From the NCBI RefSeq assembly GCF_017163705.1, contig NZ_JAFIWB010000001.1, positions 496,001-560,000 on the forward strand: a DNA stretch of 64,000 nt, written 5' to 3'. Positions 3,052 to 61,938 of this stretch are shown piece after piece. Made by a program: the position numbers and the translations under genes. How positions within the stretch are numbered: position 1 is the first letter of the stretch; every line of letters begins with the position of its first letter. The stretch comes from Xanthomonas bonasiae. Its GTDB lineage: Bacteria > Pseudomonadota > Gammaproteobacteria > Xanthomonadales > Xanthomonadaceae. Below the pieces are notes generated by a model. It was not told the DNA's origin. It saw nothing but the letters and a program-made list of their open reading frames with translations, and did not search any database.

Positions 3052-3615
3052 GCGCATCCGACCGCGTCGGCCTACCGACAAAGCAGGCGGCGGACTGCGC
3101 CCCTATCCCCTTTGCAGCGCCCGCGCCGCCGGCGCGGAGCGAAGCTTGCGGCGCGGCAGCCGCGTACCGTCGAACGGGACAGGAACCGCAACCCGCCACG
3201 GCGCGCGGACGCGGCGCTACGGCACGGCACCGAGCGCCTGCTCCAGGCGCTCGACAACCGGCAGCCGGTTGCCGATTGCCGCTGCCTTCTTCGACAGGAT
3301 CGGCTGCAGGCTCCTGCCGACACCGACACCGACAGCGCGGCGATACGCCGCATGCCGAGCGCGGCCGCGTCGCGTCGCGTCGGATCGGGTCGGGTCGGGT
3401 CGGGTCGGGTCGGGTCGGGTCGGGTCGGATCGGATCGGATCGGATCGGATCGGATCGGATCGGGTCGGGTCGGGTCGGATCAGGCGGCGATACAAGCGCA
3501 TGGTCGCGATCCAGGCCACCCTTCGCCGCCGCCTCCAGCGCAATCCGCTGCGCGACCGCGACGTACCGTCCGCAGCATGCTTCGCGGCCACGCCGCCAGC
3601 CTCTAAAGTGACGCG
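3052..3615. other. 564-base gap without a convincing gene
   Basis: No frame here has a convincing start, ribosome site or recognisable domain. Open frames exist on both strands but are arginine-rich or reflect the pentanucleotide tract at 3381-3480. The stretch probably holds the tilS promoter, which I could not pinpoint. Confidence 0.6.
3381..3480. repeat. pentanucleotide tandem repeat, 20 units
   Basis: Twenty consecutive 5-base units of CGGRT: one CGGAT, eight CGGGT, seven CGGAT, three CGGGT and one CGGAT. Degenerate CGCGT units precede it at 3371-3380. The block structure (runs of one variant, then the other) is what slipped-strand expansion of a mixed template would leave. It ends 135 bases before the tilS start and lies outside any credible gene. 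Confidence 0.95.
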
Positions 3616-6143: not shown

Positions 6144-6387
6144 CCCTGTAAGTCCCTGTAAGCCCCTGTAGGAGCGGCTTCAGCCGCGACAGAGGCAGCG
6201 GCAGGATCGGATAGGCTCGGTGCCTTCGGGCTGAAGGTTCACGTGGGAGCGACTTCAGTCGCGACGGACTCCATCGGTAGCCCTCCAGCACGACTGGGCG
6301 CTGGCACGTTGTAGGAGCGGCTTCAGCCGCGACCGGGGCTATCCCAGGCAGGAACGACCCGGTCGCGGCTGAAGCCGCTCCTACAGG
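6144..6387. repeat. REP-like cluster (four palindromic units)
   Basis: Four copies of a palindromic word close to GTAGGAGCGGCTTCAGCCGC lie at 6166-6190, 6243-6265 (variant with GACTTCAGTC), 6310-6334 and, inverted, 6361-6387. The last two face each other across 26 bases and could form a long hairpin. Before the first copy, CCCTGTA is repeated three times at exactly 10-base steps (6144, 6154, 6164). The same word occurs singly at 28738-28762, and a related pair is at 47189-47257. The cluster fills the gap between convergent ispA and the xylosidase and may act in transcript termination. Confidence 0.9.
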
Positions 6388-6427
6388 TTGCAGGCGCGCG
6401 CTGCCAATCGGCGCGAAAACCCGCGAG

Positions 6428-28737: not shown

Positions 28738-28762
28738 TGTAGGAGCGGCTTCAGCCGCGACC
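28738..28762. repeat. single REP-like unit
   Basis: One copy of the palindromic word GTAGGAGCGGCTTCAGCCGC, identical to those at 6.2-6.4 kb, in the gap between the J-domain gene and rlmH. Confidence 0.88.
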
Positions 28763-28836
28763 GCTTTTACCGGCCGCGCCCATAGCGCGCCATGGGCAGA
28801 CCGCCCGCCATCGCACTTGCACCTGCCTGCTGCGCG

Positions 28837-30003
28837 CTACTCGTCGCGCTGCGCGTCGTCCAGCATGGCCTGGAACAGCATGGCCTCGCGCGAGATTTGC
28901 GGCGGCTGCGGGCGCTGCCGCTTGAGCCAATGCCGCAGCGTCGGCGCCTGCCGCAGTTCGCGCAGGTCTTCGGCCAGTTCGTCGATCTCGTCCTGCAGCG
29001 CGCGCTTGATCTCGGCCATCGCCGCATGCAAGCGCTCCGGCTTGAGCCGGCGCGTGCCGAACACCGCGTAGTCGGCCTTGAACGCGGCATCGATCCGCCG
29101 CAGCTCGTCCTGGGTGGTCTGCAATTGCTCGCCGAGCATGCGGTTGTAGCGCTCGATGCGGGGTTCGGCCATCGCCGCCAGCGCGGCGGCGTCGAGCTGG
29201 CCGGCCTGCAACTGCAATTCGAGCAGGCCGAGCAGGTCGGCATCGGCATAGGCCGCGTTGAGCCGTTGCATCAGCGCGGTCTTGCGCTCGCGCTGCAACG
29301 GATCGGCCTCGCGGTCCGGATGCAGCGCCGCGGCCAGCCTGCGGTACACCTCGCGCAACGCGGTCTGCGGATCGAACGCCGGCGCCGGCGCCGCCGAGGC
29401 GGCGCGCTGCGCCTTCTTCGCCTTGCGTGCGACCGCCGCGACCTGGGTCTGCCGGCGGCGCTGCTGCAGGCGCTCGAACAACGCCTGCGGCGATGCCAGA
29501 TACGGCAGGGCATCGGCGTCCACACCGAAATGCACGGCGATCAACCCGCGCAGCGCCGCATCCGAGGCGGCGATACGTTCGTCGTAGGAGGTTTCCGCAT
29601 GGCGGTCGTAGAGCGGCTTGAGGTCATGCAGGCCAACCTCGTCGATCAACGGCTCGATCAGCGCGCATAGCTGCGCCGACAGCGCGGCGCGGTCGCTCTT
29701 GCCCAGCTTCTGCGCCATGCCCGCCGCATCCAGCGCCAGCACGCGCTCGACGTGCAACTGGTCGCGCCGCTGCAGCAGGGGCTGCACCTGTTCGTGGAAG
29801 CGCTGCTGCCAGCGCGGCAGGGCCTCGCGCCAGGCGGCGAGTTCGCCGCGGCTGCGCTCCAGCTGCACCACCAGGCTGTCGAAGCGCTCGCCGGCGGCGC
29901 TGCGCAGCGCATTGCCGGCGCCCGGCAATGCGGCCGACAGGGTCAGGCCCGGGCTTGCATCCGCCACCGGCGCGTCATCGCGCCGGGGCGTCGGATCAGG
30001 CAT
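28837..30003 (-). CDS. J-domain protein of unknown partner
   Basis: 388 residues from the ATG at 30003, which overlaps the rsfS end by 8 bases. Residues about 215-270 look like a J domain: [20 protein letters not shown] with the HPD at 228-230, then a helix [20 protein letters not shown]. The N-terminal part is helical with heptad-like Leu/Arg patterns and no known domain. The C-terminal third is charged and coiled-coil-like. J domains stimulate DnaK ATPase, so it is probably a specialised co-chaperone. Its place between rsfS and rlmH hints at a link to ribosomes (inference). Confidence 0.8.
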
Positions 30004-30409
30004 CGCGCGCGTCGTCGTCCGCGTCGCTCGGCGGCTGGTCGCCGACCGTCCACAGCCGCTCCAGCGCATAGAACTCGCGCACCCGCGGCAGCATCACGTG
30101 CACCACCACGTCGCCGAGATCGACCAGCACCCACTCGGCCTCGCGCTCGCCTTCCACGCCCAGCGGCATCACGTCCAGCTTCTTGGCGTGCTTGATCACT
30201 TCGTCGGCGATCGACTTGACGTGGCGGGTGGAGGTACCGGAGACGACGATCATGTAGTCGGTGACGCTGGACTTGCCGCGCACGTCGATTTCCACCGCGT
30301 CCTTGGCCTTGAGCTCGTCGAGCGCGTTGCGGACGTGGGCGAGCAGTACCGGCAACGACGGCGGCGGGTTGGGCAGTTGGGTCTTGATGACGTGGGCTTG
30401 ACTGGACAA
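29996..30409 (-). CDS. rsfS: ribosomal silencing factor RsfS
   Basis: 137 residues with a TTG start at 30409; no ATG or GTG fits in front of the conserved part. The core DLKAK-like segment [20 protein letters not shown], then [20 protein letters not shown] and [20 protein letters not shown], is typical RsfS/Iojap. The protein binds uL14 and blocks subunit joining during starvation. It follows nadD by 59 bases, the standard neighbour. A TATAAT hexamer lies in that gap. Confidence 0.93.
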
Positions 30410-30468: not shown

Positions 30469-31269
30469 CTAGTCGGCGCGGGCGCCGCTGGGGGCCGCCG
30501 CATACAGCCCGGCGGCACGGATGTAGTCCGCGACCGCGGCCGGCACCAGCGCCGCCCAGTCGCCGCCGGCGGCGATGCGCTCGCGCACCTGGCTGGCCGA
30601 TTCGCTGCGCAGCGGCTGCCGCAGGCACCACAACAGGCCGCCCGGCGCGCCGGCCAGCGCCTGCGGCGACGCCGCCCAGCGCCCGGCCACCGCCTGCGCC
30701 AGTTCGGCCGGCAAGGCGCGTTCCCAGCCGCTACCGGCACGGTCGGCGACGACCAGGTGCGCCGTGTCGAGCAGGCTGCGCCAGTCGCGCCAGGCGTTGA
30801 AGCCGACGAAGCTGTCGGCGCCGATCAGCAGCGCCAGCGGCGCGGCGGCGCCGAGTTCGGCGCGCAGCTCGCGCACCGTGTCGATGCTGTACGAGGCCAC
30901 GCCCGGCTGCGCCAGCGCTCGCTGCAGTTCGTGCCGGTCGAGCAACAGCCCGGCTTCGCCGTCGATCGCCAGCGCCAGCATCTCGCAGCGCTGCCGGGCA
31001 TTGGCGCCCGGCGCGTCGCGATGCGGCGGATCGGCCGCCGGCATCAGCCGCACCGGCACCTCGAACGCATCGCGCGCCGCCCGCGCGATCGCCAGGTGGC
31101 CGTTGTGGATCGGGTCGAAGGTGCCGCCGTAGATCAGGCTGAGAGGCCGGGATTGGGGATTCGGGATTCGGGATTCGTCAACGGCGGCAACCTCTGCGCG
31201 GACATCCGACGCCACGGGATCGCCGCTGTTGCCAATCCCGAATCCCGAATCCCCAATCCCGGCCGTCAT
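30469..31269 (-). CDS. nadD: nicotinate-nucleotide adenylyltransferase with repeat-derived N-terminus
   Basis: The conserved enzyme begins at LSLIYGGTFDPIHNGHLAIA (GGTFDP at 48-53) and continues with LLIGADSFVGFNAWRDW and SESASQVRERI. It adenylates nicotinate mononucleotide in NAD synthesis. From the ATG at 31269, which overlaps the holA stop as ATGA, it has 266 residues with about 40 extra at the N-terminus. These are encoded by a full copy of the GATTCGGG element (31146-31263). The only other in-frame start, GTG at 31215, is also inside that element. So the start must come from the repeat or its edge. Confidence 0.93.
   Translation of the reverse strand: MTAGIGDSGFGIGNSGDPVASDVRAEVAAVDESRIPNPQSRPLSLIYGGTFDPIHNGHLAIARAARDAFEVPVRLMPAADPPHRDAPGANARQRCEMLALAIDGEAGLLLDRHELQRALAQPGVASYSIDTVRELRAELGAAAPLALLIGADSFVGFNAWRDWRSLLDTAHLVVADRAGSGWERALPAELAQAVAGRWAASPQALAGAPGGLLWCLRQPLRSESASQVRERIAAGGDWAALVPAAVADYIRAAGLYAAAPSGARAD
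31146..31263. repeat. full GATTCGGG element inside the nadD 5' end
   Basis: Left arm 31146-31177 (GCCGGGATTGGGGATTCGGG and on) and right arm 31232-31263 (inverse) enclose 54 bases. The interior shares GCGCGGACA, GATC and CGCCGCT with the copy at 21131-21247. The element lies wholly within the nadD reading frame. Confidence 0.92.
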
Positions 31270-32300
31270 ACCACCAACAACCGCACCGCCCGCGCCTCGG
31301 CGATGGCCAGCAGCAGGCGCTCCAGCGCGATCCAGGCGTCGCCGTCGGCGCGGCCCTTGGCGATGCGGTCGATGCGTCCTGCTTCGGCGGCGAAGCGCTC
31401 CCAGCGGCGCGGTTCGGCATGCCGCTGCAGGGCGCGCTTGAACGGCGCCTGGCGCGACTCCCAGATGCCCTGCCCCTTCATCTCCGCGGCCAGGTTGCCG
31501 CCGGCCGCCTGGACCTTGGCCAGCGCCGCGGTGCGCAGCAGTTCCTTGATCAGGATCGGCAGCAAGGCCGCCACCGCTTCGCCCTCGGCGCGCAACCCGG
31601 CGAGCATGCGTCCGACCACCGGCGCCTGCCCGGCCAGGGTGGCCTCGGCCAGGCGGAACACGTCGTAGCGCGCGGCGTCGGCGACCAGCGACTCCATCGC
31701 CGCCACATCCAGGCTCTGCCCGTCGGCCAGCAACGCCAGCTTGTCGATCTCCTGCGCGGCGGCCAGCAGATTGCCTTCGACCCGCTCGGCCAGGCGCTGC
31801 ACCGCGCCGGCATCGGCGCGCAGGCCCTTGCTGCGCAGGCGGCGCTCGATCCAGTCGCCCAGTTCGTGCGGCTTGATCGCCCAGGCCACCGCGATCACCC
31901 CGAGCCGGCCGACCGCGTCGGCCCACTTGCCCTGGTGCGCCTTGCTCCATTCGTTGCAGGTGATCAGCAGCACCACGTCCGGCGGCGGATCGGCGCAGAA
32001 CGCACTGATCACCTCGCCGCCTTCCTTGCCGGGCTTGCCGCTGGGCAGGCGCAGTTCGATCAGCCGGCGCGGGCTGAACAGGCTCGGCGCATTGAAACTG
32101 GAATACAGCTGGCTCCAGTCGAACTCGCGGCCGTCGGCGTCGAACACCTCGCGCTCGCCGATGCCTTCGGCGCGCGCACGCGCACGCACCGCGTCGGCGG
32201 CCTCGAGCACGCGCAGGGTTTCCGGGCCGGCGATCAGGTAGACCGGATGCAGCGGCTGCGCGGCCGGCTGGGTGACGAGCTGTTCGGGACGCAATTCCAT
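31266..32300 (-). CDS. holA: DNA polymerase III delta subunit
   Basis: 344 residues, start MELRPEQLVTQPAAQPLHPV. The HolA clamp-loader pattern is clear: YLIAGPETLRVLEAADAVRA, FSPRRLIELRLPSGKPGKEG, LRADAGAVQRLAERVEGNLL and AAQEIDKLALLADGQ. It opens the beta clamp as part of the gamma complex. lptE lies upstream (86 bases) and nadD overlaps downstream. Confidence 0.96.
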   Translation of the reverse strand: MELRPEQLVTQPAAQPLHPVYLIAGPETLRVLEAADAVRARARAEGIGEREVFDADGREFDWSQLYSSFNAPSLFSPRRLIELRLPSGKPGKEGGEVISAFCADPPPDVVLLITCNEWSKAHQGKWADAVGRLGVIAVAWAIKPHELGDWIERRLRSKGLRADAGAVQRLAERVEGNLLAAAQEIDKLALLADGQSLDVAAMESLVADAARYDVFRLAEATLAGQAPVVGRMLAGLRAEGEAVAALLPILIKELLRTAALAKVQAAGGNLAAEMKGQGIWESRQAPFKRALQRHAEPRRWERFAAEAGRIDRIAKGRADGDAWIALERLLLAIAEARAVRLLVV

Positions 32301-47169: not shown

Positions 47170-47188
47170 GCGACGCGGCCCGGCTCGT

Positions 47189-47257
47189 ATGGGAGGGGCT
47201 TCGGCCCCGACCGGGCCTTGCCGATAAAAAGCGGTCGGGGCTGAAGCCCCTCCTACA
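47189..47257. repeat. facing pair of REP-like units
   Basis: Two inverse copies of a relative of the REP word (GGAGGGGCTTCGGCCCCGAC and GTCGGGGCTGAAGCCCC) separated by about 18 bases, containing AAAAA. A long hairpin is possible. It lies between the convergent DUF885 and methyltransferase genes and may terminate both. Confidence 0.85.
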
Positions 47258-54793: not shown

Positions 54794-56860
54794 ATGACCC
54801 GCACCGCTCTCGTCACCACCGCCCTGCCCTATGCCAATGGTCCGCTGCACCTGGGCCATCTGGTCGGCTATATCCAGGCCGACATCTGGGTGCGCGCGCG
54901 GCGGCTGCGCGGCGACCGCACCTGGTTCGTCTGCGCCGACGACACCCACGGCACGCCGATCATGCTCGCCGCGGAGAAGGCCGGGGTCACCCCGGAGAAC
55001 TTCATCGCCAACATCCAGGCCAGCCACGAGCGCGATTTCGCCGCGTTCGGCGTGGCCTTCGACCATTACGACTCGACCAACTCGGCCGCCAACCGCGCGC
55101 TGACCGAGGCGTTCTACGCCAAACTCGAGGCCGGCGGCCACATCGCGCGGCGCTCGGTGGCGCAGTTCTACGATCCGGCCAAGGGCATGTTCCTGCCCGA
55201 CCGCTACATCAAGGGCATCTGTCCCAACTGCGGCAGCGCCGACCAGTACGGCGACAACTGCGAAGTCTGCGGCGCCACCTATGCGCCGACCGAGCTGAAG
55301 GAGCCGAAGTCGGTGATCTCCGGCGCCACTCCGGAATTGCGCGACTCGGAGCACTTCTTCTTCGAGGTCGGCCGCTTCGACGGCTTCCTGCGCGAATGGC
55401 TGGCCGGCGACGTGGCCCTGCCCGGGGTCAAGGCCAAGCTGATGGAGTGGCTGGACAGCGAGGGCGGGCTGCGCGCCTGGGACATCTCGCGCGACGCGCC
55501 GTACTTCGGCTTCGAGATCCCCGGCCAGCCGGGCAAGTACTTCTACGTGTGGCTGGACGCGCCGATCGGCTACCTGAGCAGCTTCCAGACCCTGTGCGCG
55601 AGCCTGGGCGAAGCGTTCGAACCGCACCTGGCCGCCGGCACCGCCACCGAACTGCACCATTTCATCGGCAAGGACATCGTCAACTTCCACGGCCTGTTCT
55701 GGCCGGCGGTGCTGCACGGCACCGGCCACCGCGCGCCGACCCGGCTGCACGTCAACGGCTACCTGATGGTGGACGGCGCGAAGATGTCCAAGTCGCGCGG
55801 CACCTTCGTGATGGCGCGCACCTACCTGGACGTGGGCCTGGAGCCGGAAGCGCTGCGCTACTACTTCGCCGCCAAGTCCTCCGGCGGCGTGGACGATCTG
55901 GACCTGAACCTGGGCGACTTCGTGGCGCGGGTCAATGCCGACCTGGTCGGCAAGTTCGTCAACCTGGCCAGCCGCTGCGCCGGCTTCATCGACAAGCGCT
56001 TCGGCGGCCGGCTGGCCGATGCGCTGCCGGACCCGGCGCAGTACGCGCGCTTCGCCGCCGCGCTGGCGCCGATCCGCGACGCCTACGAGCGCAACGACGC
56101 GGCCAGCGCGATCCGCCAGACCATGGCCCTGGCCGACGAGGCCAACAAGTACATCGACGAACACAAGCCGTGGGTGATCGCCAAGCAGGACGGCGCCGAC
56201 GCGCAGTTGCAGGCGGTGTGCACGCAGGGCCTGAACCTGTTCCGGGTGCTGGCCGGCGCGCTGAAGCCGGTGCTGCCGCGCACCAGCGCCGAGGCCGAAG
56301 CCTTCCTGTCCGCGCCGCTCACCGCCTGGGAAGATCTCGACGCGCCGCTGCTGGCGCACGTCATCCAGTCCTACACCCCGCTGTTCACCCGAATCGACCC
56401 CAAACTGATCGACGCCATGACCGACGCCTCCAAGGACACCCTCGCCCCCGCGCCCGCCGCCAAGCCGGCGCCGGCCAAGACCGAAGCGAAAGCCGCCGCG
56501 AATCCCGAATCCCCACTCCCCAATCCCGGCCTAATCGGCATCGACGATTTCGCCAAGCTCGACCTGCGCATCGGCAAGGTGCTGGTCTGCGAATTCGTCG
56601 AGGGTTCGGACAAGCTGCTGCGTTTCGAACTGGACGCCGGCGAACTGGGCAAGCGGCAGATCTTCTCCGGCATCCGCGGCAGCTACGCCGAGCCGGAAAA
56701 ACTGGTCGGCCGCAGCGTGGTGTTCATCGCCAACCTAGCCCCGCGCAAGATGCGCTTCGGCCTGAGCGAAGGCATGATCCTGTCGGCCGGCTTCGACGGC
56801 GGCGCGCTGGCGCTGCTCGACGCCGACAGCGGCGCGCAGCCGGGGATGCCGGTGCGTTGA
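54794..56860 (+). CDS. metG: methionyl-tRNA synthetase with repeat-derived linker
   Basis: 688 residues. HLGH at 19-22 and KMSKS at 330-334 are intact; the zinc ligands are Cys143, Cys146, Cys156 and Cys159. The C-terminal EMAP/Trbp dimerisation and tRNA-binding domain begins near residue 583 ([18 protein letters not shown]). The linker before it is Ala/Pro/Lys-rich and contains [10 protein letters not shown] (residues 570-579), encoded by an arm of the GATTCGGG element (56501-56530), 30 bases and in frame. Catalytic parts are untouched. Charges initiator and elongator tRNA-Met. Confidence 0.97.
56501..56530. repeat. element arm within metG
   Basis: A 30-base arm (AATCCCGAATCCCC then CTCCCCAATCCCGGC) equal to the right arm of the intergenic element. 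No opposite arm is nearby. It is in frame with metG. Confidence 0.88.
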
Positions 56861-60157: not shown

Positions 60158-60936
60158 ACGCATCCGTGCCCGATCCGCAGGAAACCCCGCCGCCGCGCGA
60201 CGTGCTGGCCGGCGAATACGTGCTTGGCGTGCTCGATGCAAGCGAACGCCGCGCCGCCGAACAACGCATCGACGCCGACGCCGAGTTCGCCGCGGCGGTG
60301 ACGCAATGGCAGAAGCACCTGATGCCGCTGGCCGACGAGATCGCGCCGGTCGCGGTGCCGGAGCGCGTGTGGGTGCGCATCCGCGCATCGCTCGGCCTGG
60401 ATGCGCCGGTGCCGCGCGCGCCGACGGCATCGCCTGGCTTCTGGGAAAGCGTGCGCACCTGGCGTTGGCTGAGCGCCGGCGGTTTCGCCACCGCAGCGGC
60501 GTGCATGCTCACGCTGATGGTCGCGCGGCAGCCGCTCCCGCCGCAAACGCCCACCCCGCCGGTCGCCACGGCGCCAGCCGACACCGGCATCGCGATGACC
60601 TCGACGCTGATGCAGGACGACGGCAAGCCCGGCTACGTGGTGCTGATGGACGCCGACAAGAAGCGCATCACCCTGACCCCGCTGGCCGGCAGCCGCGATC
60701 CCGCGCGCGTGCCGGAGCTGTGGCTGATCCCGGCCGACGGCAAGGCGCGCTCGATGGGCGTGTTCGACGACGCGCAGGCGCGCGCGGCGCGCATTCCCGA
60801 CGCGCTGATGCCGTTGCTCAGCGACGGCGCCTTGCTGGCGGTGACGATGGAACCACCCGGCGGCGCGCCCGGCGGCGTCGCCACCGGTCCAATCGTGGCA
60901 AAGGGCGGTATCAGCACGCTGCGCCTGGCGCCGTAG
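60154..60936 (+). CDS. RskA-type anti-sigma factor
   Basis: 260 residues. Cytoplasmic N-terminus with DVLAGEYVLGVLDASERRAA (typical of anti-SigK), a membrane helix around 107-127 (LSAGGFATAAACMLTLMVAR), and a periplasmic beta domain containing GYVVLMDADKKRITLTPLAG and VPELWLIPADGKARSMGVFD. No zinc motif HxxxCxxC is present, so it is not a ZAS-type anti-sigma. It holds the sigma factor until proteolysis. Stop at 60936 is followed by the repeat array. Confidence 0.92.
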   Translation: MNASVPDPQETPPPRDVLAGEYVLGVLDASERRAAEQRIDADAEFAAAVTQWQKHLMPLADEIAPVAVPERVWVRIRASLGLDAPVPRAPTASPGFWESVRTWRWLSAGGFATAAACMLTLMVARQPLPPQTPTPPVATAPADTGIAMTSTLMQDDGKPGYVVLMDADKKRITLTPLAGSRDPARVPELWLIPADGKARSMGVFDDAQARAARIPDALMPLLSDGALLAVTMEPPGGAPGGVATGPIVAKGGISTLRLAP

Positions 60937-61938
60937 CCAGGCCGCCGCGGCGCCAGCTGTTCCTTCTCCCTGCAGGAGAAGGTGCCCCGAAGGGGCGGAT
61001 GAGGGTATGGGCGAAGCCTCAAAGATCCAGACGCGCCCGCCTGCCCGTGCCGACGTACCCTCACCCCAACCCTCTCCCGGTGGGAGAGGGGCTACTGCGG
61101 CTCGCAGACAATGCAACGCAGACTGCGCACCTCCCTTCTCCCTGCGGGAGAAGGTGCCCCGAAGGGGCGGATGAGGGTACGGGCGAAGCCTCAAAGATCC
61201 AGACGCGCCAGCCTGTCCGTGCCGACGTACCCTCACCCCAACCCCTCTCCCGGCGGGAGAGGGGCTACTGCGGCTCGTAGACAATGCAACGCAGACTGCG
61301 CAGCAACGCAGACTGCGCACCTCCCTTCTTCCTGCGGGAGAAGGTGCCCCGAAGGGGCGGATGAGGGGACGGGCGAAGCCTCACAGATCCAGATGCGCCC
61401 GCCTGTCCGTACCGACGTACCCTCACCCCAACTCTTCTCCCGGCGGGAGAGGGGGCTACTGCGGCTCGTAGACAATGCAACGCAGACTGCGCACCTCCCT
61501 TCTTCCTGCGGGAGAAGGTGCCCCGAAGGGGCGGATGAGGGTACGGGCGAAGCCTCACACATCCAGATGCGCCAGCCTGGCCGTGCCGACGCACCCTCAC
61601 CCCAACCCCTCTCCCGGTGGGAGAGGGGCTTGAGCGCCGTGTGTCGGTGACACGCTCGGCGCTCGCGCTGCGCGTGATCATCAGAAGCACCGCGAACCCG
61701 CACGTTCACCCGGCCACCACTCGCGCGCAGGCAGCATCGCCGCAGCCGTCGCGCATGCGCCGGGCAGCCTGATCCTCCGACGATTCGACCTGCGTGGACG
61801 CCGCCGCTAGCGGCGACCGCATGCGCTGCCGTGGCCGGCCATCGATGCCGGCCGCAGCGCGCACAGACGCCGCGACGCGAGTGCATCCGTCTTCCGGTTT
61901 TGTCCGTATCGCTATCCGAATCCCCACGAGATGCGCTT
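60937..61938. other. about 1 kb without a gene
   Basis: The first 690 bases are filled by the four-unit repeat array; the rest (61631-61938) shows no convincing coding region. Open frames across it merely translate the repeats. The promoter of the desaturase gene must be in the right part but was not seen. Confidence 0.65.
60962..61630. repeat. four-unit compound repeat array
   Basis: Four direct units start at 60962, 61134, 61324 and 61498 (periods 172, 190, 174). Each begins with the hairpin CCTTCTCCCTGCGGGAGAAG and has a second hairpin GCCCCGAAGGGGC. It ends with CTCTCCCGGCGGGAGAGGGG. GATGAGGGTA near the start is complementary to TACCCTCACC near the end. A linker of about 43 bases with ATGCAACGCAGACTGCGCAC joins units; this is partly duplicated in the longer second interval. 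Units differ at scattered sites, so the array is not a recent copy only. Confidence 0.93.

What the first reader, a model, noticed from the sequence alone, without database searches (positions are those of the whole stretch)
31146..31263. An inverted-repeat element supplies the start region and about 40 N-terminal residues of NadD
A full element (two inverse arms around 54 bases) lies between the ATGA overlap with holA and the conserved LSLIYGGTFDP start. Both in-frame starts (ATG 31269, GTG 31215) are at the edge of or inside the element, and the first plausible core codon after it is a CTC. So the translation start of an essential NAD-synthesis enzyme comes from a repeat. NadD is normally about 210-225 residues; this has 266.
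Basis: partly seen in the sequence, partly recalled or inferred. Interest (0 to 1): 0.72.

Follow-up and report, generated by a model that had tools for sequence, protein, structure and literature searches.

The report
Repeat element encodes NadD's N-terminal tail
A hairpin-forming DNA repeat sits in frame between the start codon and the body of an essential NAD-making enzyme, probably giving it a floppy tail of about 40 residues, and the same kind of repeat is also found in frame in several other core genes of this bacterium.

Summary
Perfect 31-nt inverted arms (31145-31175 / 31234-31264, 58 nt apart) of GGGATTS heptamers lie between the ATGA holA/nadD overlap and the NadD core and encode about 40 N-terminal residues. 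Correction: the start codon (ATG, 31269) lies just outside the element; the repeat separates start from core.

All 20 genomes held of the genus keep the coupled ATG in frame (10 extension lengths, no stops). Over four genera, 37 of 38 heptamer-filled junctions with an overlapping start are in frame, against 20 of 46 without such a start. Two genus members nearly without heptamers keep the frame with decayed arms. Translation from ATGA is therefore very likely; the hairpin looks dispensable.

NadD is not alone. LpxB has the same coupled extension (in frame 20 of 20, typed arms in 18). This genome also has in-frame elements in PurL (two sites), MetG, FolA and YbgC. Arm type changes between species at fixed positions and tends to match other elements of the genome; once the nadD loop is inverted. 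The tail is predicted with low confidence.

Best reading: a translated, tolerated palindromic repeat, analogous to Rickettsia palindromic elements, built of G-rich heptamers like those known from Xanthomonas. New variant of a known kind.

The parts
31266..32300 (-). holA, DNA polymerase III subunit delta; its TGA stop (31268-31266) overlaps the nadD ATG
   Evidence: ORF; TIGR01128 E 1.1e-68
31267..31269 (-). nadD start codon ATG in the ATGA overlap; lies just outside the element
   Evidence: kept in 20 of 20 genus genomes
31147..31269 (-). coding region of NadD residues 1-41, the element-derived N-terminal extension
   Evidence: NCBIfam match starts at residue 42; pLDDT block means 39-60 for residues 1-40
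31234..31264 (-). first arm (G-rich in coding sense): heptamers GGGATTG/GGGATTC with a GGCC edge
   Evidence: (I19)
31176..31233 (-). 58-nt segment between the perfect arms; contains the alternative in-frame GTG 31215
31145..31175 (-). second arm (C-rich in coding sense), perfect reverse complement of the first
   Evidence: I19; period-7 array 31148-31177
30469..31146 (-). NadD core (nicotinate-nucleotide adenylyltransferase), residues 42-266 and stop
   Evidence: NF000839 E 3.9e-78 over residues 42-258
29996..30409 (-). rsfS, next gene downstream
   Evidence: TIGR00090 E 2.5e-36
56499..56531 (+). half element in frame inside metG, just before the C-terminal domain (TIGR00399 match from residue 561)
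   Evidence: (D3)

Best explanation
A dispersed inverted-heptamer element lies between the translationally coupled nadD start codon (ATG of ATGA) and the NadD core. Ribosomes finishing holA restart at ATGA, read through the element, and make NadD with a flexible, fast-changing tail of about 40 residues (38-63 codons before the conserved Tyr in the genus). The element is tolerated because heptamers of form GGGRNYS hold no stop codon on either strand, the loop is open, and selection keeps the total length a multiple of three. The tail probably has little function of its own, and the hairpin is not required by the gene. SHOWN by sequence: the element, frame conservation, recurrence in other core genes, different arm types at the same site, one loop inversion. 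INFERRED: restart at ATGA, a tail tolerated rather than useful, and homogenisation of arms by conversion or recombination among elements.
For: (1) 20 of 20 genus genomes: ATGA kept, extension in frame, no stops, 10 distinct lengths. (2) Of 110 junctions read 109 could be scored: 37 of 38 with overlapping start plus heptamer gap are in frame and open, against 20 of 46 without an overlapping start. (3) G001 and G012 have 0-3 hits to each of six heptamer patterns and decayed arms (15 of 19 and 12 of 14 positions), yet the frame stays open. (4) Same design at lpxA-lpxB: 20 of 20 coupled and in frame, 8 lengths. (5) Elements inside PurL, where no alternative start can bypass them: site 2 filled in 18 of 20 genus genomes, site 1 in the 17 that could be read (G019 not captured), neither in G001 and G012. 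(6) L092 and L093 have no in-frame ATG/GTG/TTG between ATGA and the core. (7) AlphaFold block-mean pLDDT is 39-60 for residues 1-40, then mostly above 85. (8) 0 of 1024 pairs of GGGRNYS units hold a stop word on either strand.
Against: No peptide or ribosome data. In 18 of 20 genomes some in-frame ATG/GTG/TTG lies between ATGA and the core, so an internal start is not excluded there. One heptamer-filled genome of genus g17 (L162) is out of frame. A very stable hairpin right after the start codon could hinder initiation. The genomes are related, so counts are not independent. Being stop-free is not special: 204 of 256 possible GGGNNNN units are stop-free in tandem on both strands. The low pLDDT of the tail may only reflect the lack of relatives for it in the alignment.
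Confidence: 0.86

Rival explanations
1. The element is an ordinary intercistronic hairpin; NadD starts at a non-standard or internal codon near the core, and the open frame upstream is an accident of stop-free heptamers.
For: Rehm et al. [quoted passage not shown] here the G-rich arm follows the holA stop. A CTG lies two codons before Tyr47. Most possible heptamers are stop-free.
Against: Frame kept in 37 of 38 heptamer-filled junctions and in 2 genus genomes with decayed arms, against 20 of 46 without overlap. No conserved start near the core: L086 has none of ATG/GTG/TTG/CTG after a TTG 27 codons before the Tyr. In PurL the same kind of element cannot be bypassed.
Confidence: 0.08
2. The hairpin or its quadruplex-prone arms have been recruited to control nadD (damping coupled translation, or as an RNase III site), and the tail is a by-product.
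For: Fold z from -2.6 to -12.3 in the 18 genomes with arms; arms are mostly of one type within an element although the type differs between species; the position next to the start suits control of initiation.
Against: G012 has no hairpin beyond chance (z -0.4) and keeps the gene arrangement. G001 is only a weak case, since its z of -3.8 is stronger than that of G013 with arms (-2.6). Similar palindromes sit deep inside PurL, where such control is not expected, and there 4 of 17 site-1 copies have arms of different types.
Confidence: 0.2
3. The tail has a selected protein function (partner binding, solubility, regulation) and the repeat is only the raw material.
For: Extension retained in all 20 genus genomes, and in frame in 19 of 20 of genus g17, also where arms have decayed. 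The AlphaFold model puts a low-confidence helix at residues 19-28.
Against: Length (38-63 codons in the genus) and sequence are not conserved; the loop is inverted between G017 and G003; low confidence in the model. Retention can be explained by the fixed coupled start.
Confidence: 0.12

Closest known systems
GGGNATC / GGGAATC G-rich heptamer repeats of Xanthomonas (Rehm et al. 2015, PMC4692102)
   Different: They report the repeats as mostly intergenic (89% and 93%); 11% and 7% overlap an ORF at least in part, so coding copies were counted, but in the parts I saw their effect on proteins is not treated, and the main text names neither nadD nor purL (lpxB once, as a Nostoc gene near a repeat). 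Here the unit is GGGATTS, the copy is translated in a core gene, and the unit type differs between species at the same site.
Rickettsia palindromic elements (RPE) and Wolbachia palindromic elements
   Same: Palindromic repeats in frame in unrelated genes, apparently without inactivating them (passages in PMC10969869 and PMC4224334; the original RPE papers were not read).
   Different: RPEs are about 150 bp and encode a conserved peptide; here the arms are short tandem heptamers, the peptide varies and the unit type turns over. No sequence comparison with RPEs was made.
Coding palindromes in Nematomorpha mitochondrial genes (PMC6649704, search listing and start of abstract only)
   Same: Long inverted repeats inside protein-coding genes.
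   Different: Animal mitochondria, perfect repeats up to 284 bp; no dispersed heptamer family in what I saw.
REP / MITE elements (general knowledge, recalled)
   Same: Short dispersed palindromes next to genes.
   Different: No target duplication or transposase was sought here; the REP-like repeat of this window (e.g. 6167-6397) is a different sequence.

Membership tests
Rehm GGGAATC heptamer repeats | tandem heptamers of form GGGANTN, at least two units | tested here: met
   31148-31177 period 7, 4.3 copies of CGGGATT; arms
Rehm GGGAATC heptamer repeats | at least one GGGAATC unit in the repeat (their search rule) | tested here: not met
   Units at nadD are GGGATTG and GGGATTC only; so not filed as a strict member, though G000 also has 48 AATS pattern hits and 5 relatives carry AAT-type arms at nadD
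Rehm GGGAATC heptamer repeats | quadruplex formation in vitro | not testable with these tools
   Each arm has four G-tracts; no measurement
Rickettsia palindromic elements (as a way of working) | same repeat family in frame in unrelated protein genes | tested here: met
   nadD, lpxB, purL (two sites), metG, folA, ybgC in this genome
Rickettsia palindromic elements | encodes a conserved peptide | tested here: not met
   Arms read as GIGDSGF, GNGESGI, GTGDRGP and others
Rickettsia palindromic elements | sequence homology with RPE families | not tested
   No RPE sequence was compared
MITE | target-site duplication and mobilising transposase | not tested
   Short PurL sites exist (G001, G012 and other genera) but duplications were not analysed
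NadD (nicotinate-nucleotide adenylyltransferase) | equivalog model above curated cut-off | tested here: met
   NF000839 262.3 bits, cut-off 187

The most novel reading that the evidence does not exclude
A genome-wide process, still unidentified, overwrites these elements at fixed positions: it changes both arms together to another heptamer and sometimes flips the loop, and it does so inside the coding sequences of essential genes, so that the ends and loops of core enzymes such as NadD, LpxB and PurL are repeatedly rewritten by concerted evolution of a repeat family, possibly flipping even within a population.
Probability: 0.3. Interest if true: 0.8.

Novelty: new variant of a known kind. Interest (0 to 1): 0.6.

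Why it matters
Palindromic repeats inside core proteins are known from Rickettsia and Wolbachia, host-bound bacteria with small genomes (the latter recalled). Here a heptamer repeat described mainly as an intergenic, quadruplex-prone sequence is part of the coding sequence of several core enzymes in a genus with larger genomes (3.5-5.5 Mb; the name Xanthomonas is inferred), at positions kept across species while the repeat letters differ. That gives a natural experiment on how proteins tolerate inserted disorder and on how bacterial repeat families are homogenised. It also warns that starts of nadD, lpxB, folA and ybgC may be hard to annotate in this group, and that a repeat is not proof of non-coding DNA.

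Tried and rejected
Start near the core: rejected as general, because codons there are not conserved (CTG, CTC or TTG) and the upstream frame is kept. Hairpin as a required regulator: weakened mainly by G012. Further inversions: the only pair above my threshold over nadD, lpxB, purL1 and purL2 was nadD G003/G017; with a looser rule listed six other nadD pairs with minus-strand scores of 21-33, near the shuffle level, not used. Named Xanthomonas records: the one genome-contig scan kept 80 loci, none of that name, the first being Stenotrophomonas; near relatives may be left out there. Two RNA folds of guessed coordinates hit wrong stretches and are not used; one search replaces them. In one search the list of alternative starts was wrong where no upstream stop exists, and the output was cut; counts come. 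L170 was dropped (no holA motif), leaving 109 of 110. purL site 1 of G019 was not captured by my pattern. Literature: ten searches listed no paper on proteins encoded by these heptamers beyond Rehm's count of intragenic repeats; I saw listings only, and the library lacks most subscription journals. One original RPE paper was looked up and is not held. A proteogenomic paper on X. euvesicatoria (PMC5559785, passages only) has no hit for nadD or purL in its main text.

Full report
WHAT IS THERE. On the minus strand the order is holA, nadD, rsfS. The holA stop and the nadD start overlap as ATGA at 31266-31269. Five nt after the A of the ATG begins an inverted pair of GGGATTS heptamer arms: 31234-31264 and 31145-31175, 31 of 31 complementary, 58 nt apart. 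Allowing mismatches, 41 of 43 positions pair around a 33-nt loop. RNA folding gives -104.9 kcal/mol, z -11.25, 0 of 200 shuffles as good. The frame runs open through both arms into the NadD core; the NCBIfam model starts matching at residue 42 of 266.

THE SEQUENCE CLASS. The window's genome (G000, 5.38 Mb, 89 contigs) holds 187 exact three-unit ATTS hits, 48 AATS and 57 ACTS (both strands); the backward-read control gives 0 in G000 for each. These are overlapping pattern hits, not elements. Rehm et al. (PMC4692102; [quoted passage not shown] 11% and 7% overlap an ORF at least in part. The nadD copy has no GGGAATC unit, so it fails their strict rule but is the same style of repeat.

IS IT TRANSLATED? 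In 20 of 20 genomes of the genus the ATGA is kept and the stretch to the conserved Tyr is 114 to 189 nt, ten distinct lengths, all multiples of three, without stops. In genus g17 all 20 genomes read have an NTGA overlap; 19 are in frame and open (20 to 98 codons) and L162 is not. The one g2 genome and one of nine g28 genomes read are also filled and in frame. Of 110 nadD junctions one (L170) could not be scored. Of the rest, 37 of 38 with an overlapping start and heptamers in the gap are in frame and open; of 46 without an overlapping start, 20 are; of 23 non-genus overlaps without heptamers, 12 are. The 90 non-genus loci were picked from the listed hits of a 395-genome search, with g17 added to on purpose after its first cases were seen, so they are not a random sample. 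Relatedness inflates such counts, but 23 distinct lengths among the in-frame g1 and g17 cases are hard to get without selection on frame.

G001 and G012 are the natural control. They give 0-3 hits for each of six heptamer patterns. Their nadD arms are decayed: 15 of 19 positions in G001 and 12 of 14 in G012; fold z is -3.8 in G001 and -0.4 in G012. ATGA, frame and openness stay. G001 is the weaker control: G013, which has arms, folds with z of only -2.6. So the frame is what is kept, and a strong palindrome is not needed. An internal start cannot be excluded in 18 of 20 genomes, which have some ATG/GTG/TTG between ATGA and the core; L092 and L093 have none.

NOT ONLY nadD. I read 60 stretches of G000, chosen from pattern hits whose listings were cut, plus the window; this is a sample of the genome. 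They hold 79 heptamer clusters, 16 with coding signal on the same strand on both sides. Six of these lie in coding frame: nadD; lpxB (lpxA-ATGA-element-core, model match from residue 42); folA (half element, GTGA; dihydrofolate reductase model NF008037 from residue 22, below its curated cut-off); ybgC (match from residue 27 of a frame counted from the first GTG; a stop in the loop leaves only GTG and TTG starts inside the element before the core); metG (half element, window 56499-56531); and purL. PurL carries a second one. The other ten each have a possible start after the element; in L244 the upstream frame also seems to run through it.

lpxB repeats the nadD story: 20 of 20 genus genomes coupled and in frame, 8 lengths, typed arms in 18. 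purL is the strongest case for translation, since the inserts lie inside the protein. Site 2 is filled in 18 of 20 genomes and site 1 in the 17 that could be read; G001 and G012 have short loops. For other genera 99 genomes were searched with a naturally short PurL as query and 96 matched. Of the 30 best loci fetched 23 parsed: G006 of the genus and the g2 genome are filled at both sites; one (L316) had no readable site 2; the other 20 are short there (20-28 residues). At site 1, L326 and L333 of other genera show heptamer-like residues. Ranking by a short query favours short sites, and lower-ranked matches that break at site 1 (for example G035 and G081 of g17) were not fetched. Short site 2 is probably ancestral, but this is not proven.

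TURNOVER OF THE REPEAT. At nadD the arms are ATT-type in 8 genomes (G016 mixed), AAT in 5, ACC in 3, ACT in 1, ACG in 1, decayed in 2. In 13 of the 18 genomes with arms the nadD type is the commonest of the six patterns counted in that genome; in G005, G006, G010, G017 and G019 it is not. Across nadD, lpxB, purL1 and purL2 in the 17 genomes with all four, 71 of 102 within-genome pairs share the type, against 32.8 expected, and 0 of 5000 permutations are as high; the permutation ignores the tree, so shared ancestry may explain part. The two arms of an element share a type in 17 of 19 (nadD, the exceptions being mixed G016 and decayed G012), 18 of 18 (lpxB), 13 of 17 (purL1) and 17 of 18 (purL2) typed cases. 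On the nadD tree types do not follow clades neatly (G004 AAT beside G002 ATT, support 81/89), but 8 of 21 inner branches are weak. Between G017 and G003 the nadD loop is inverted: the reverse complement aligns at 58 of 62 positions (score 104), the direct strand scores 26, the best of 500 shuffles 24. This is one event among the genomes compared.

MECHANISM. Shown: an element between start and core, frame kept, different types at fixed places, one inversion. Inferred: the coupled start cannot easily move, so an in-frame insertion was tolerated as a tail; recombination or conversion between arms and between elements keeps arms alike and brings new types. GGGRNYS units hold no stop word on either strand (0 of 1024 pairs), which makes such insertions easy to bear, but 204 of 256 GGGNNNN units are stop-free too, so this need not be an adaptation. 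AlphaFold with 36 sequences gives pLDDT block means 39, 49, 57, 60 for residues 1-40, with a low-confidence helix at 19-28, and mostly above 85 for the core; the alignment has little information on the tail, so low confidence there is expected anyway.

VERDICT. Observation confirmed; interpretation right about the tail, wrong about the origin of the start codon. It works like the palindromic elements of Rickettsia and Wolbachia (passages only) but is not shown to be a member of them.

Noticed in passing
window 56499-56531: Half heptamer element in frame inside metG, just before the C-terminal domain.
   Followed up: partly
L214 (own genome C7:93400-96250): Two heptamer elements inside purL, both in frame; filled in 18 of 20 genus genomes at site 2 and in the 17 read at site 1, absent in the two genomes nearly without heptamers.
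   Followed up: yes
L209 1097-1140: A second heptamer run at the 3' end of lpxB seems to encode the last residues of LpxB (model match ends at 418 of 436).
   Followed up: no
L162 (G384, genus g17): Only heptamer-filled nadD junction with an overlapping start that is out of frame; assembly error or real frameshift not decided.
   Followed up: no
L144 (G080, genus g16): A different heptamer run (CTCACTC) lies just before the nadD core, in another genus.
   Followed up: no
window 3369-3478: 22 copies of a GTCGG pentamer array.
   Followed up: no
window 60916-61630: Four copies of a unit of about 175 nt in a row, 72-96% like the reference copy (D2).
   Followed up: no
window 6167-6397, 28738-28767, 47188-47217: Another dispersed palindrome, TGTAGGAGCGGCTTCAGCCGCGAC, resembling GTAG-type REP sequences (name recalled).
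   Followed up: no
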